Origin: Pseudanabaena frigida
Lineage (GTDB): Bacteria > Cyanobacteriota > Cyanobacteriia > Pseudanabaenales > Pseudanabaenaceae
Direction: 5' to 3'
Length of the DNA: 61,798 nt
NCBI GenBank assembly: GCA_003242085.1
Contig: QBML01000032.1
Location: 1 to 61,798, forward strand
The notes under the pieces are model-generated. The model searched no databases, had not been told where the DNA came from, and was given only the letters and a program-made list of their open reading frames with translations. Position 1 is the first letter of the stretch, and each line of letters begins with the position of its first letter. Both the position numbers and the translations under genes were made by a program. Positions 1 to 61,798 of the stretch are shown here, one piece after another.

Positions 1-82
1 AACCCAAATAAATAGAGGCGGCGCTTCGCGCCGCCTCTATTTATTTGGGTTTTATGTCTTAAGCAAAACTTGTATTGCTATA
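1..82. repeat. Right part of a modular hairpin repeat element
   Basis: Positions 1-51 are a perfect inverted repeat: two 24-bp arms around a TTC apex. It is followed by a flank (TTTTATGTCTTAA, then AGCAAAAC) and ends TATTGCTATA at 82. The same right flank and end recur at 61766-61798 and, partly, at 17605-17624 and 42140-42155. The left half lies outside the window. The end of the element supplies the stop codon of the fasciclin gene on the minus strand. A transcript would fold into a very strong stem-loop, so it may also terminate transcription. Confidence 0.8.
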
Positions 83-24924: not shown

Positions 24925-25037
24925 TTATAGCAGTAGCCAGTTATGTTAGGACAAAAGCAAAACCCATAAGAGAGTTGCGGCGCAAAGCGACACAACTCTC
25001 TTATGGGTTTTATGGCTTAGCTTAGGCTGTATCTATA
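24925..25037. repeat. Modular hairpin repeat element
   Basis: The left end TATAGCAGTAGCCAGTTATG is shared with 61685-61704, then AGGACAAAAGCAAAAC leads into a hairpin (24959-25011) with arms AAAACCCATAAGAGAGTTG. The loop region GCGGCGCAAAGCGACA is imperfect. The right flank GGGTTTTATGGCTTAG is a diverged form of the flank at 44-61. The element ends near CTGTATCTATA. It lies 25 bp after the hydrolase stop. Confidence 0.7.
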
Positions 25038-26547: not shown

Positions 26548-26560
26548 TTTTTGACTAAAA

Positions 26561-26607
26561 CAATAAAAAAGTGGTGGGAAGCTAAGCTTCCCACCACTTT
26601 TTTATTG
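26561..26607. terminator. Bidirectional terminator between hli and ATP-grasp gene
   Basis: CAATAAAAAAGTGGTGGGAAGC pairs perfectly (22 bp) with its complement around TAA. The stop codon of the minus-strand gene lies in the right arm; T-runs occur on both strands. Confidence 0.88.
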
Positions 26608-27438
26608 TTGTGATTTTAAATATTCTAAAATCCTTTGAAAGAGATTAACGATCTCTTCTTCCCCATTATCTCTAATGAAAATATCAAAATTCGGATGCGA
26701 ATTTGCTTCGATTAACCAGTAATTCTCCCGATCGTCTAAAGCAACATCAAGACCAACATAAGCGATCGCCATTTTCTGAAAAATTGGTTTAATGAATTCA
26801 GCGATCGCATTAATAACTTCGCGATCGCTTACTTGTTTAGCGATCGCTCCTTCCCAATGTAAAGGACTGAGATTGCCAGTAAATTCTGCTTGCGAAAAAT
26901 CTTTGTCATACACAATCACTTGCTCTCCATTGAGACATACACAGCGATATTCTTTCACAATATTGATAGATTCTTGGGCAAGTGCAATATAGTCATAGCT
27001 TTTAGAATTGATATTAAATATATGCTCTAGAGCCTTTCGCATTTGCTGCGGATCGTGACATCTGAAAACATTGCTTCCTCCCGATCCCCGATTTCTTTTA
27101 AGAATAATGGGTAGTTCAAAATTCTTCTCAATTTCGATAATAATTTCATCAATGGAAGAGAATTGTAAGTACTCTTTATATTTCTCATCGCAATAGGGAG
27201 AAATAAAAGATAGAGTGCGTGGCATTTTTACTACATCTTGGAAGACTTGATAAAAATACTGCTTATCTTTAAAAATTTCAGCGACAGATTGAGGTGTTAA
27301 TGGCGTTGAATAGTTAGTGAAGTAATATTCGCGATCGCCAATTATGACTTTGACTAAGTTTTGATTGGGATGCAAAATTTCACATGCAATAGATAGCTTT
27401 TTGCAAGCCTCAAGCAACATCTTGATATTTGTCAGCAT
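26602..27438 (-). CDS. ATP-grasp domain protein (RimK-like)
   Basis: The 278-residue protein has a preATP-grasp lead (about 1-85) and an ATP-grasp fold. Visible are the ATP-binding LPIILKRNRGSGGSNVFRC (about 110-128), the purine-side segment IALAQESINIVKEYRCVCLNG, and the metal-binding end YVGLDVALDDRENYWLIEANSHPNF. The pattern matches small RimK-type ligases that join an amino acid or peptide carboxylate to an amine with ATP. The substrate is unknown and no peptide-precursor or export gene is adjacent. The true start could be a few codons downstream at the second Met. Confidence 0.78.
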   Translation of the reverse strand: MLTNIKMLLEACKKLSIACEILHPNQNLVKVIIGDREYYFTNYSTPLTPQSVAEIFKDKQYFYQVFQDVVKMPRTLSFISPYCDEKYKEYLQFSSIDEIIIEIEKNFELPIILKRNRGSGGSNVFRCHDPQQMRKALEHIFNINSKSYDYIALAQESINIVKEYRCVCLNGEQVIVYDKDFSQAEFTGNLSPLHWEGAIAKQVSDREVINAIAEFIKPIFQKMAIAYVGLDVALDDRENYWLIEANSHPNFDIFIRDNGEEEIVNLFQRILEYLKSQQ

Positions 27439-27463
27439 AGTTACTTAATTCTATTCGTTCACT

Positions 27464-27506
27464 TATTTTATTAGAGTGGGTGCTTTGCACCCACTCTAAT
27501 AAAATA
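27464..27506. terminator. alaS terminator
   Basis: TATTTTATTAGAGTGGGTGC pairs perfectly with its complement around TTT. It lies 3 bp beyond the alaS stop on the minus strand. Confidence 0.88.
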
Positions 27507-27508
27507 AT

Positions 27509-33353: not shown

Positions 33354-35993
33354 ATGGAGTGGCGAGAGTTTTTAGCACAGCTTGCGGATGAGAATATTAA
33401 AAATCTTAAAGATTTAAGCTCTAACGTACCTACAGCAACTGTGCGAAAAACTTTTATTGAGTCATTCCCTGAACGTCATGGAGTTGCAGATAATCCTTTT
33501 AAAGGTGATAAAACAAAGGAAGCTCAGCAAACCTTGGTTTATAAGTGTTTTGAGGAAGTTTGTCCTGATTTGAAAGCTAAGAGTAAAGGTAAATGGCAAG
33601 TTTTAAGAGATTGGCTAAATGATGAGTTTGCATCACTAAGTTCACCTCAAAAGAAAGATCGATTTCGGGCTAATGAGCCTTTGCCGTCAATTCCTGTGTG
33701 GCATGGGCGGGAGTTGTTGCTCACTCAGTTGCAAGAGTTTTTGAAAGAGGCTACTTTGCGGGTGTTGGTGTTATTGGGGCAGGGGGGAATTGGCAAGACG
33801 AGTTTGGCGATCAAACTGATGGAAAAGATTGCGCCACAGTATAAGCAGGTGTTTTATTTTCGGGTGCGGGAAGGGAAGAGTTTTGATGATTTGGTTGCTT
33901 TAGTATTGGGTCAGGAAGCTTTGGCAGACCAAACCGTAGAAGCAAAAATTTTAGAGATCTTGAGATGCTTCCAGCAGCCGACTTTGCTGGTCTTGGATAA
34001 TTTAGAAGATGGGTTACATCCTGCTCATAGTGAAAATTTAGGCAAAGCAATCGATCCAGAGCTTGGTGTATTGATAAATCGTTTAGCATTTAGCCAGCAT
34101 CAAGCAAAAGTAATAATCACTAGCCGAGAACTCCCGCTAGATCTTGCAGATCCACGCACTAAAAGAACTAACCCAAAACTGGTTCGGGTGCATATTGTGG
34201 ATGGGATTAGTCAAGAAGCAAGCCTTGAAATTTTGCAAGAATATGGTTTTAGTGATAAACGTTTGGCAGACCTGAAAACAATTGCCGAACGGACGGGTGG
34301 ACATCCTTTGATGATGGAACTGCTATCTAACTATGTAGAGCAGGTAGATTATTTGCTCAAATATCCTGAAATCTTTGCTGAGGGAGCAATTTCCATTTTG
34401 CAAGATCAACTTTTGCGGCAACCAGAATCAGCTAGGGAATTGTTATTCCGCATGACTTTATTGCGTCATCCTGTTGAAGTAGGCGGCTTAAATTTTTTGC
34501 GACTCTATGATGATGGGTGGGAAAAAGATGGGCGCTACGAACAAGCATTAATGCTTATGCCGAGACAACAAACTCTTGAGTTTAGCGAATCTATAAAGCA
34601 TGAGACAAAGCAACTTTTACGTTTGTTAACAGAAGCAAATTTAGTCAAGCAGACCTACGACGAATGGAAAAGTGAATTTTTCTATAACCTACATCCTGTA
34701 GTAGTTGAAGGAGTGCAGACTGTTTCTAGCTTTGATAGCCTACCGAGTTTATTTCACCGCGTCTATAGGTATTATCAGTCTGACCGTAGTTTCCAAAGTT
34801 TTGATTTTCAAAGGGATACCCAACGCATAGGAGAAGCAATAGTTTTTGCTTGGCTATCAGGGGATCTAAGAGAGGCAGAAAGTTTAGTACAAATCCTGTT
34901 CAATTATTCTATAAGATTGGGTCAGGGTGATTTCTTAGAAACAGCCTTGTCTCAAGCAGCATCTATCAATGAAAATGTTAAGCAATCAGACTCGCTATTG
35001 TTACTGGCACGTTTTCATAGAGATATTGGTAACTGGAATGAAGCAGAATCCTATTGCTATCAAGCTTTATCAATAGCAGAAGAATTAGGCGATCGCGCGG
35101 GTAGGGCTATGATTTGGGGAGCATTAGGAGGCATCGAGCGCAATCGTGGCAACTGGGATGCGGCAGAAGCACTCTTTCAGCAATCTTTGCAATTGAGGAC
35201 TGAATTAGGCGATCGCGCGGGTATGGCAAATTCTTGGGGATTATTAGGAGACATCGAGCGCAACCGAGGCAACTGGGATGCGGCGCAATCTCTCTACAGA
35301 CAATGTTTAGCAGTTGAACAAGAATTAGGCGATCGCGCGGGTATGGCAAGTTCTTGGGGAGTATTGGGAGACATCGAGCGCAATCGTGGCAACTGGGATG
35401 CGGCGGAATCTCTCTACAGGCAATCTTTGCAATTGAGAACTGAATTAGGCGATCGCGCGGGTATGGCAAGTTCTTGGGGAGTATTAGGAGAAATCGAGCG
35501 CTACCGAGGCAACTGGGATGCGGCAATAGATTTTTATCTTAATGCACTTACATTTAAAGAAAATTTAATGGGACTTGATCATCCTGAAGTTGCTGACTTA
35601 CTTGTTAGTCTTGGTAGTACTTATCAGCAACAGAAATCTTACGATCAAGCAGAAGCATATTTTTCAAGATCACTGACGATCCGCGAGCAAAAGTTAGGTT
35701 TAAATCATCCAGAAACAAAAAAAGTTCGTATGATGTTGAATGGAATGCAGCAAATAAAAGATAGTCCACAAGCAGCAGATTTTATGACATCAATTTTGAG
35801 TTTAATGCAACAGAAACCAGAATTGGCTTCCACATTACAACAGTCTATAACTCAAAGATTAGCTACTACTCCTGATGCGGACATGGAAGATATTATGCAA
35901 ACGCTCCTATTTGAATTAGCTGAAAATGATTCTGATCTAAAAAATTTAATAACTCAATTTTCAGAGCTATCAGATACAAATACAGAAATATAG
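33354..35993 (+). CDS. STAND (NB-ARC-like) ATPase with C-terminal TPR array
   Basis: The 879-residue protein has an uncharacterised N-terminal domain (1-105), then a STAND NTPase. The latter has Walker A LLGQGGIGKTSLA (about 141-152), Walker B TLLVLDNLEDG (210-220), a sensor strand KVIITSRELP and the winged-helix-linked TGGHPLMMELL. A linker with winged helix (about 320-480) leads to TPRs from about 540 to 790. Residues 563-722 are four almost identical 40-residue repeats. STAND proteins switch from an ADP-bound closed state to an ATP-bound oligomer on ligand binding by their sensor repeats; several are antiphage sensors. It follows the HEPN gene by 3 bp, so it forms a three-gene operon with MNT and HEPN. 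The ligand and effector are unknown. Confidence 0.85.
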   Translation: MEWREFLAQLADENIKNLKDLSSNVPTATVRKTFIESFPERHGVADNPFKGDKTKEAQQTLVYKCFEEVCPDLKAKSKGKWQVLRDWLNDEFASLSSPQKKDRFRANEPLPSIPVWHGRELLLTQLQEFLKEATLRVLVLLGQGGIGKTSLAIKLMEKIAPQYKQVFYFRVREGKSFDDLVALVLGQEALADQTVEAKILEILRCFQQPTLLVLDNLEDGLHPAHSENLGKAIDPELGVLINRLAFSQHQAKVIITSRELPLDLADPRTKRTNPKLVRVHIVDGISQEASLEILQEYGFSDKRLADLKTIAERTGGHPLMMELLSNYVEQVDYLLKYPEIFAEGAISILQDQLLRQPESARELLFRMTLLRHPVEVGGLNFLRLYDDGWEKDGRYEQALMLMPRQQTLEFSESIKHETKQLLRLLTEANLVKQTYDEWKSEFFYNLHPVVVEGVQTVSSFDSLPSLFHRVYRYYQSDRSFQSFDFQRDTQRIGEAIVFAWLSGDLREAESLVQILFNYSIRLGQGDFLETALSQAASINENVKQSDSLLLLARFHRDIGNWNEAESYCYQALSIAEELGDRAGRAMIWGALGGIERNRGNWDAAEALFQQSLQLRTELGDRAGMANSWGLLGDIERNRGNWDAAQSLYRQCLAVEQELGDRAGMASSWGVLGDIERNRGNWDAAESLYRQSLQLRTELGDRAGMASSWGVLGEIERYRGNWDAAIDFYLNALTFKENLMGLDHPEVADLLVSLGSTYQQQKSYDQAEAYFSRSLTIREQKLGLNHPETKKVRMMLNGMQQIKDSPQAADFMTSILSLMQQKPELASTLQQSITQRLATTPDADMEDIMQTLLFELAENDSDLKNLITQFSELSDTNTEI
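35041..35520 (+). repeat. Four 120-bp tandem repeats encoding TPRs
   Basis: Four units with exact 120-bp period lie inside the STAND gene. Each unit ends GGCGATCGCGCGG (35088-35100, 35208-35220, 35328-35340, 35448-35460) and contains CATCGAGCGC and GGCAACTGGGATGCGGC at the same offset. Very high nucleotide identity implies recent expansion or gene conversion. A HIP1 octamer lies in every unit at the same place. Confidence 0.95.
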
Positions 35994-41180: not shown

Positions 41181-42040
41181 TAAATACTCTTATAAATCCC
41201 ACATTACAAACTGAAATTTGCCAATTCATCCGTGAAATTGGTCAAAAAGCGATTCATCTGAGAGAATTAGGCTTTCAAGTTACTGAGAAAGGCTTTGATG
41301 ATTATGTGACTAATGTCGATCGCGAACTCGATCTACTTTTAAGTCAAAGATTTCAGGAATGGTTTCCTAATGATGTGGTGATTAGTGAAGAAAACTTGCG
41401 ATCGCAAGCACTTTGGCGACAGCAATCAGAACTTACTAAAAAGTTTTGGTTTATCGATCCCATCGATGGTACTGATGACTTTATTCATGGGCGTGAATTC
41501 TACTCCGTAATGGTAGGTGTTTTAGAAGCATTTCAGCCAGTGCTAGGTTGGGTCTATGCACCAAAGAGCGATCGCCTCTACTTTGGCGGGACTGCTATCA
41601 ATGGCTTATTTATAGTTACTAATGGCAATATCCCTGAAGTTTTACATCCGCAAGCACCAATTGGCTCTAGTCGAGATCGCGTAATCGTCAGTAAAAAAGA
41701 TGACCTCGCCTATGGTAATGCGATTCGTGCTGCTGTTCCAAATGTTGAATTTTATAGTCTCGGTAGTTTTGGATTGAAAGTAATGGAAGTTGTACTGGGT
41801 CGAGCCAGTGCCTACATCTATCTCAATCGCCGCGTTAAACTTTGGGATACCGTTGGGCCATTAGCGATCGCAAGGGCAGCAGGTTTAGTTTGTTGCGATC
41901 TCAATGGGCGTGAGATTGGATTTGGCTATGATGATATTAATCCTGACAACTTGACTCACAATCAAATGATTGTCATTGGCTGGCAAAAGTTTATTGACTT
42001 ATATCGTGAAGCGATCTCTAAAGAGTTAAACAATATTTGA
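41177..42040 (+). CDS. Inositol monophosphatase/CysQ-like phosphatase
   Basis: The ATG at 41177 overlaps the SDR stop and gives 287 residues; an earlier in-frame ATG lies within the SDR gene. Metal-site motifs are present: VISEEN (about 72-77), WFIDPIDGTDDFIHG (about 91-105) and the C-terminal KLWDTVGPLAIARAAG (about 227-242, the WD pair). Members hydrolyse inositol phosphates, sugar bisphosphates or 3'-phosphoadenosine phosphates with Mg2+; the exact substrate cannot be told. The gene is translationally coupled to the SDR. Confidence 0.88.
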   Translation: MINTLINPTLQTEICQFIREIGQKAIHLRELGFQVTEKGFDDYVTNVDRELDLLLSQRFQEWFPNDVVISEENLRSQALWRQQSELTKKFWFIDPIDGTDDFIHGREFYSVMVGVLEAFQPVLGWVYAPKSDRLYFGGTAINGLFIVTNGNIPEVLHPQAPIGSSRDRVIVSKKDDLAYGNAIRAAVPNVEFYSLGSFGLKVMEVVLGRASAYIYLNRRVKLWDTVGPLAIARAAGLVCCDLNGREIGFGYDDINPDNLTHNQMIVIGWQKFIDLYREAISKELNNI

Positions 42041-42044
42041 GATG

Positions 42045-42155
42045 TATAGCAATAAAAGAGATAGGACAAATCAAAGTCCAAATAAATAGAGGTGGCGCTT
42101 CGCGCCACCTCTATTTATTTGGACTTTTGCACTACACACAACTTGCATTGCTATA
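42045..42155. repeat. Complete modular hairpin repeat element
   Basis: A 111-bp unit with ends TATAGCAAT and ATTGCTATA. Inside, AGAGATAGGACAAATC leads to a near-perfect hairpin (42073-42127) with arms AAAGTCCAAATAAATAGAGG and a GCTTCGC apex, then a right flank ending CAACTTGCATTGCTATA. It starts 4 bp after the phosphatase stop. The middle of the stem is almost the same as at 1-51 (AAATAAATAGAGG). Confidence 0.85.
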
Positions 42156-43118: not shown

Positions 43119-43173
43119 AAAACCCAAATAAATAAAGGCGGCGCAAAGCACCGCCTTTATTTATTTGGGTTTT
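43119..43173. terminator. 26-bp hairpin, terminator of the DUF3177 gene
   Basis: Arms AAAACCCAAATAAATAAAGG... pair over 26 bp around AAA (one mismatch near the apex). The outer 15 bases equal those at 1-51. Confidence 0.85.
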
Positions 43174-43175
43174 CT

Positions 43176-43318
43176 CTATAGCAATCCTAATTGAGATATG
43201 AGAAGCTTCAAAACTTCTGCAATCTCAGTGCATCGCAAAGCTCAGCCAGCAATAATAATCGTTGGCTGAGCTTTGAGCTTAACCAACGCCCAAATTCTTA
43301 CATCTCATTTAGGACTAC
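43176..43318 (+). repeat. Dispersed repeat with terminal inverted repeats, copy A
   Basis: Begins CTATAGCAATCCTAATTGAG and ends CTCATTTAGGACTACC. The interior contains CAGTGCATCG, AAGCTCAGCCAGCAATAATA and TTGGCTGAGC. Reading 59752-59878 on the minus strand gives the same order of blocks, so these are two copies of one element. Confidence 0.78.
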
Positions 43319-59751: not shown

Positions 59752-59878
59752 TACAGCGTTCCTAAATCATTTGTGAGAATCTTGGGCTTTGCTCAGCCAA
59801 AGATTATTATTGCTGCTTAGCAAAGCGATGCACTGAGCTTGACGAAGTGTCGAAGCCTCTCATTTAGGATTGCTATAG
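59752..59878 (-). repeat. Dispersed repeat with terminal inverted repeats, copy B
   Basis: Read on the minus strand it begins CTATAGCAATCCTAAATGAG and ends ATGATTTAGGAACGCTGTA. It contains the blocks CAGTGCATCG, CAGCAATAATAATC and TTGGCTGAGC in the same order as copy A at 43176-43318. A GGCTTCGACACTTCGTCAAG segment near its start belongs to the GCTTCGAC repeat family. Confidence 0.78.
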
Positions 59879-61683: not shown

Positions 61684-61798
61684 TATAGCAGTAGCCAGTT
61701 ATGTCAAAACAAAAGCAAAACCCAGAAGAGAGTTGCGGCGCTTCGCGCCGCAACTCTCTTCTGGGTTTTATGTCTTAACTTATTTGGCTATAGCTATA
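61684..61798. repeat. Modular hairpin repeat element
   Basis: Left end TATATAGCAGTAGCCAGTTA (shared with 24925-24944), then AAAACAAAAGCAAAACCC, a perfect 25-bp-arm hairpin (61717-61769) with GCTTCGC apex, right flank TTTTATGTCTTAACTTATTT and end GGCTATAGCTATA. The right flank equals that at 48-61, although the stem middle (AGAAGAGAGTTGCGGC) is different. Confidence 0.82.

What the first reader, a model, noticed from the sequence alone, without database searches (positions are those of the whole stretch)
42045..42155. Modular repeat: conserved ends and flanks, exchangeable hairpin core
Copies at 1-82, 24925-25037, 42045-42155 and 61684-61798 share TATAGCA-type ends and the flanks AGGACAAAAGCAAAAC (left) and TTTTATGTCTTAA (right). 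The long stem in the middle differs in sequence between copies while remaining self-complementary. Conserved flanks around a variable but always perfect palindrome are unusual for a simple MITE. They suggest a process that renews or swaps the palindrome, such as template switching or gene conversion at a cruciform.
Basis: partly seen in the sequence, partly recalled or inferred. Interest (0 to 1): 0.75.

Follow-up and report, generated by a model that had tools for sequence, protein, structure and literature searches.

The report
Self-renewing, flipping hairpins in cyanobacterial repeats
Short repeats in this cyanobacterium carry long DNA hairpins whose loop often turns round in place and whose two arms come to share each other's mutations, so the hairpin stays nearly perfect while its sequence drifts; the cause is probably a known copying slip, seen here at unusual speed.

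Summary
The hairpins are real: 20 perfect inverted repeats with arms of 15 bp or more in the window, none in 20 simulated sequences. The four copies belong to two repeat families: A (24926-25037, 61684-61798) and B (1-82, 42045-42155). Most stems within a family descend from one stem; true core swaps exist but are few.

Between two genomes 0.69% diverged (G005/G006), 58 of 136 hairpins with arms of 10 bp or more have the loop inverted in place, against 1 of 682 with arms of 6-9 bp; for arms of 16 bp or more it is 47 of 93, i.e. saturated. In 54 B copies, 82 stem pairs changed on both arms and stayed complementary and 50 changed on one arm; the flank rate predicts 5 and 269.

Best explanation: template switching between arms, giving spacer inversion plus arm homogenisation, as described in yeast and resembling chloroplast minute inversions. 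The novelty is rate and scale in a bacterium. No reads were available, so assembly artefact is argued against, not excluded; cruciform recombination would leave the same marks.

The parts
42045..42155 (-). Family B repeat (the finding), hairpin 42073-42127 with 26-bp perfect arms and loop TTC on the + strand
   Evidence: model R2 match; lies just after an ORF that ends at 42040
1..82 (-). Family B repeat cut by the contig start, hairpin 1-51
24926..25037 (+). Family A repeat, hairpin 24959-25011 with two mismatched pairs; orthologue in G023 shows a two-sided stem change and the same loop
61684..61798 (+). Family A repeat at the contig end, hairpin 61717-61769
43119..43173 (.). Family B type core without recognisable B flanks; low flank score in the B scan
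26559..26609 (.). Hairpin without A or B flanks; against G023 the one-base loop is inverted (A to T) and several stem pairs differ on both arms (by my reading of the alignment)
27463..27507 (.). Hairpin without A or B flanks; loop TTT here, AAA in G023

Best explanation
Families A and B are short, dispersed, non-coding, MITE-like repeats (about 115 bp, TATAGC..GCTATA ends) whose centre is a hairpin with 25-26 bp arms and a 3-base loop. Similar hairpins without these flanks lie between many genes. When DNA is copied through such a hairpin the polymerase switches to the complementary arm and back. A switch that spans the loop turns loop and inner stem round in place. A switch within one arm copies that arm onto the other, erasing a mutation or spreading it to both arms; if it runs past the stem end it copies a flank. 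So the stem stays self-complementary and drifts, while the flanks mutate like ordinary DNA. Shown by sequence comparison: loop inversion in place, its dependence on arm length, the excess of two-sided changes, a few extended stems. Inferred: that the step is replication template switching rather than cruciform recombination, and that the differences arose in the cell and not in sequencing or assembly.
For: Loop inversion: G005/G006, 234,658 aligned columns, 0.69% substitutions; inverted loops 1 of 682 for arms 6-9 bp, 11 of 43 for arms 10-15, 47 of 93 for arms 16 or more (intervals and tests). Of the 58 inverted at arms 10 or more, 50 have nothing else changed in the hairpin and 8 bases either side, 8 have further changes. 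Stretches chosen by position alone: 36 of 81. Short loops invert more: loops of 5 bases or less 44 of 81, 7 or more 6 of 27, arms 15 or more. Second pair G011/G015 (7.5% diverged): 4 inverted, 7 same, 5 other, of 16 scored. Two-sided changes: B in G000 82 against 5 expected; A in G007 9, each in a single copy, against 0.07; A in G000 16 against 0.39, 9 of them one shared variant. Stem extension: L047, L041, L056. The yeast study reports the same two outcomes and inversion only for arms above 9 bp (PMC8604942).
Against: In G005/G006, one-sided arm changes (17) are near the background expectation (23.4) and two-sided are 1 (expected 0.03), so arm correction is slower than loop inversion. A one-rate model that fits the one-sided B changes predicts 125 two-sided against 82 seen. 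The B copies were collected with an arm pattern and a model that rewards pairing, and the count requires both arms within 8 substitutions, which favours paired stems. In G011/G015 short arms (6-9 bp) also show 4 inverted loops of 275, and a second scoring of G005/G006 gives 2 of 535, both one-base loops. Template switching and cruciform recombination leave the same products. The hairpins sit at gene ends, so selection for pairing may contribute.
Confidence: 0.68

Rival explanations
1. Recombination at an extruded cruciform, or between arms on different chromosome copies (cyanobacteria are polyploid, recalled), inverts the core and converts the arms, without a polymerase switch.
For: Same products and a similar dependence on arm length would be expected; some inverted cores carry an inner mismatch along, e.g. 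L370/L371.
Against: Inversions occur with arms of only 10-15 bp, 11 of 43, short for RecA-type pairing (recalled); one-arm copying and copying of a flank (L047, L056) fit a polymerase switch more simply. No direct test was possible.
Confidence: 0.2
2. Selection for a working 3'-end hairpin (terminator or RNA stabiliser) keeps arms paired by ordinary compensatory mutation; loop changes are neutral.
For: 25 of 26 window hairpins lie outside ORFs (two of them at the window ends), 20 of them between tandem + strand or convergent genes, 1 between divergent genes.
Against: Does not predict exact loop inversion in 58 of 136 hairpins at 0.69% divergence with few other loop changes, nor 9 private two-sided changes in repeats whose flanks differ by 2.1%.
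Confidence: 0.06
3. Sequencing or assembly artefact: assemblers choose loop orientation at random where arms exceed the word length.
For: G005 is in 160 contigs and several G000 contigs end inside these repeats. Reads were not available.
Against: Arms of 10-15 bp, shorter than usual assembly words (recalled), are inverted in 11 of 43, and the rise with arm length is gradual. G006 is one contig of 4.53 Mb. It does not explain two-sided stem changes.
Confidence: 0.05
4. Ordinary MITE families with diverged copies and subfamilies; the variable stems are inherited from several source copies.
For: 54 of 57 B copies keep one stem lineage; some two-sided variants are shared by many copies (one A variant in 9 of 17 copies).
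Against: 15 of 30 two-sided B variants and all 9 in G007 are private, and loop inversion is seen at one and the same site in two genomes.
Confidence: 0.01

Closest known systems
Template switching between short inverted repeats in Saccharomyces cerevisiae (Abraham and Hazkani-Covo 2021, PMC8604942)
   Same: Spacer inversion and arm homogenisation; inversion seen only with arms above 9 bp; short spacers favoured (sections read).
   Different: There ten spacer inversions in coding sequence across 50 strains; here 58 of 136 hairpins between two genomes, in a bacterium, by the counts mostly in repeats and gene-end hairpins of the kind mapped.
Minute inversions in chloroplast hairpin loops (trnH-psbA and others; PMC2903610, passages; Kelchner and Wendel 1996 seen only as a reference there)
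   Same: Loop between inverted repeats flips within species; recurrent; non-coding DNA.
   Different: Organelle; loop of 25-27 bp with 18-bp arms in the case read; here loops are mostly 1-7 bases, and arm co-variation is measured as well.
Template switching that creates and maintains RNA hairpins (PMC8794818, abstract and discussion); quasipalindrome mutations in E. coli (PMC7202029, search listing only)
   Same: One arm templates the other; compensatory changes in one step.
   Different: Complete loop inversions are called very rare in the rRNA data of PMC8794818; here they are the commonest loop change.
MITEs and REP/REPIN repeats (PMC3733652, PMC3116915; search listing only)
   Same: Short, dispersed, non-coding, inverted ends (A, B) or palindromic.
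   Different: Target duplication and parent transposase were not established here; REP-type tags were not tested.

Membership tests
Template-switch products at inverted repeats | Spacer replaced by its exact reverse complement at an orthologous site | tested here: met
   58 of 136 hairpins with arms of 10 bp or more, 50 of them with no other change
Template-switch products at inverted repeats | Needs arms above about 9 bp | tested here: met
   1 of 682 at 6-9 bp against 58 of 136 at 10 bp or more
Template-switch products at inverted repeats | Arms homogenised beyond the background rate | tested here: met
   Met in repeat copies and weakly in G011/G015 (5 against 0.53 expected); in G005/G006 only 1 two-sided against 17 one-sided
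Template-switch products at inverted repeats | Arises during replication by a polymerase switch | not testable with these tools
   needs genetics or in-vitro work
MITE | Short non-coding element with terminal inverted repeats, many dispersed copies | tested here: met
   about 115 bp, TATAGC..GCTATA ends, 36 places (A) and 132 recovered cores (B) in G000
MITE | Target-site duplication at an empty/filled site pair | tested here: inconclusive
   intergenic DNA around two young copies could not be aligned across the site
MITE | Ends match an autonomous transposon | not tested
   no parent transposase was searched for
Known RNA family (Rfam) | Match at gathering score | tested here: not met
   only two tRNAs in the window
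Intrinsic terminator | Position after stop codons, G+C-rich stem, T run | tested here: inconclusive
   20 of 26 hairpins between tandem + strand or convergent genes; termination itself cannot be tested here

The most novel reading that the evidence does not exclude
In this genus hundreds of gene-end hairpins are two-state sites that flip in place much faster than bases are substituted, as a by-product of how cyanobacterial replication handles hairpins. The same inherited habit would underlie chloroplast minute inversions, so plastids would have kept an ancestral cyanobacterial mutational property.
Probability: 0.3. Interest if true: 0.82.

Novelty: new variant of a known kind. Interest (0 to 1): 0.62.

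Why it matters
It turns an odd-looking repeat into a measured mutational process: roughly 52 inversions (arms 10-15 bp) and at least 117 (arms of 16 bp or more, from the lower confidence limit) per hairpin for each substitution per site (rough). It warns that covariation in bacterial hairpins is not by itself proof of selection for RNA structure, and that strain comparisons will misread such sites as clustered substitutions. It offers a culturable bacterial system for chloroplast minute inversions.

Tried and rejected
Rejected: one modular family (two families). Rejected: free core exchange as the main process (54 of 57). Rejected: loss of SbcD as the cause (family found in 24 of 24 genomes). 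Uninformative: the ExoI C-terminal domain is absent from 24 of 24, but among the 14 control genomes it is found in E. coli alone.

Led nowhere: the empty-site test. The E. coli control is too weak: a 50-kb MG1655 stretch has no arm above 13 bp, and at arms 10-12 two strains give 0 inversions in 8 comparisons of the same few hairpins. G014/G022/G025 stretches gave one usable hairpin with arms of 10 bp or more, in G014/G022, not inverted. My first impression that core AAAAGATGAGTGG goes with a GCGTTGCTATA right end is weak: 3 of 8 such cores against 2 of 106 B1 cores.

Print: my searches listed no title or opening abstract about loop inversion at hairpins in cyanobacteria; the library lacks most subscription journals and one hit was not shown.

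Dropped rows: 75 of 132 B cores lack two well-preserved flanks and 3 of the other 57 fall outside the B1 set; 27 of 47 (G007), 28 of 45 (G000) and 9 of 13 (G023) A cores were dropped likewise. B cores had to have a 3-base loop and no more than 8 substitutions per arm, 14 in all. Palindromic loops were left out of orientation counts. 5 of 36 fetched G005 loci had no partner among 38 G006 loci. In G011/G015, 7 hairpins were dropped for poor flanks and 7 of 23 had indels; an earlier run counted one locus twice and was replaced. The first orthologue scan of the window missed reverse-strand loci and was redone.

Full report
What is there. The window is contig C25 of a 5.39-Mb draft genome (G000, 67 contigs). 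The four copies belong to two families of about 115 bp. Family A (24926-25037, 61684-61798) and family B (1-82, 42045-42155) share TATAGC..GCTATA-type ends and AGGACA..AAAACCC next to the stem, but differ in the rest. A covariance model of each was built; the B model finds both B copies of the window (150 matches, the most it scores, some elements on both strands). The A left end is at 36 places in G000; a longer piece of it is in 21 of 26 genomes of the genus, most in G007 (74) and G023 (64).

Chance and setting. The window holds 20 perfect inverted repeats with arms of 15 bp or more; 20 dinucleotide-Markov sequences hold none. Of 26 hairpins (the 25 perfect ones with arms of 12 bp or more, plus 24959), 1 lies inside an ORF of 100 codons or more, 2 are at the window ends, 10 lie between tandem + strand genes, 2 between tandem - strand genes, 10 between convergent and 1 between divergent genes. 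That is where terminators sit. Rfam finds only two tRNAs.

Stem covariation. In 22 A copies that I picked to be diverse, 11 of 25 stem pairs have changes on both sides, against 3.1 in shuffles. Less selected: 54 B copies of G000 with both flanks preserved. Of 1404 pairs, 1269 are unchanged, 82 changed on both sides and complementary, 50 on one side (28 of them G-T), 3 on both sides and unpaired. The flank rate of 10.7% predicts 269 one-sided and 5 two-sided changes; arms shuffled between copies give a mean of 9.2 and at most 25 two-sided. Of 30 two-sided variants 15 are private. These B copies came from an arm pattern and a model that rewards pairing, so stems that fell apart are under-represented. 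The A copies came from the left flank, though the count still asks for both arms within 7 substitutions: G007 (20 copies, flank divergence 2.1%) 9 two-sided, all private, 13 one-sided; G000 (17 copies, 5.2%) 16 and 10, with 9 of the 16 one shared variant; G023 (4 copies) 4 and 7.

Loop inversion at the same site. L034 (G005) and L035 (G006) have the same surroundings and arms, but loop GAA in one and TTC in the other. To see whether this was general I took 31 orthologous pairs from a model search (that pair among them), one pair from another search, and ten pairs of 20-kb stretches chosen by position. Together: 234,658 aligned columns, 0.69% substitutions; arms of 6-9 bp, 1 inverted loop of 682; arms of 10-15 bp, 11 of 43; arms of 16 bp or more, 47 of 93 (95% interval 40-61%). 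Of the 58 inverted at arms of 10 bp or more, 50 show no other change and 8 do. The position-chosen stretches alone give 36 of 81, the model-chosen pairs 22 of 56. Seven of the 136 fall in the class 'loop or inner arm changed'; of the six printed, at least two contain an inversion too. A second scoring of the stretches gives 37 of 86 for arms of 10 bp or more and 2 of 535 for arms of 6-9 bp. Another pair, G011/G015 (7.5% diverged), gives 4 inverted, 7 same and 5 other of 16 scored, and 4 of 275 for arms of 6-9 bp. In the window itself, seven hairpins lie inside an alignment with G023: loops are inverted at 26559 (one base) and 27463, unchanged at 24959, 25512 and 30761, and 16316 and 26228 are too diverged to score.

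Stem extension and core swaps. Of 124 distinct sequences with an A left flank and a stem, 9 have a stem reaching into the flank. L056 is listed on both strands and L077 is an unrelated hairpin. The clearest is L047, where a 34-bp stem includes left-flank sequence and the usual right flank is gone; L041 and L056 are similar. Core replacement is rarer: L003 joins the A left flank to a B stem, and among 132 B-type cores 8 carry AAAAGATGAGTGG and 18 neither that nor the main stem, by a loose match.

How it most likely works. The polymerase leaves its template in one arm, copies the complementary arm, and returns. Across the loop this inverts the spacer; within one arm it homogenises; past the stem end it copies a flank. 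The yeast paper (PMC8604942; abstract, introduction and one results section read) reports these outcomes, with inversion only for arms longer than 9 bp, which is also the limit here. PMC8794818 (abstract and discussion) proposes the mechanism for compensatory changes and calls complete loop inversions very rare. Chloroplast loop inversions are described in PMC2903610 (passages). Rough rates: about 52 inversions per substitution per site for arms of 10-15 bp and at least 117 for longer arms; arm correction of the order of 40-80. Slower arm correction fits the 17 one-sided and 1 two-sided changes in G005/G006 stems (expected 23.4 and 0.03). The one-rate model predicts 125 two-sided B changes where 82 are seen and 4 in G007 where 9 are seen, so it gives only an order of magnitude.

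What is not settled. Reads could not be inspected, so artefact is argued against only: arms of 10-15 bp invert, the rise is gradual, one of the two genomes is a single contig. Cruciform recombination gives the same products. Selection on gene-end hairpins may help keep arms paired but does not predict loop inversion. The E. coli control is too weak to say that the rate is special. Whether A and B are true MITEs is open (no parent transposon was sought). SbcD-family genes are in 24 of 24 genomes tested.

Verdict. It is a known kind of mutation at a scale for which my searches listed no report in bacteria.

Noticed in passing
window 35028-35507: Direct repeats with a 120-base period, 74-83% alike over 240-base copies.
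   Followed up: no
window 43198-43271 and 59791-59863: Inverted copies of another short repeat, two adjoining matched pieces of 49 and 25 bases (80% and 96% complementary), seen in the repeat scan.
   Followed up: no
window 1 and 61798; G000 contigs C27, C30, C46, C57, C60: Several contigs of the draft genome begin or end inside family A or B copies, so copies at contig ends may be unreliable.
   Followed up: partly
L430 2113-2259 (G023): Perfect 72-bp inverted repeat with loop AAA that ends at the end of the locus, so it may be a contig-end fold-back artefact.
   Followed up: partly
G005 and G006: Held as two species, yet only about 0.7% diverged in the stretches compared.
   Followed up: no
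G000:C6:96085-96861 and G000:C34:197-958: Two SbcD-family genes per genome in 23 of 24 genomes of the genus (one in G010); three matches in G017, one of them below the cut-off.
   Followed up: no
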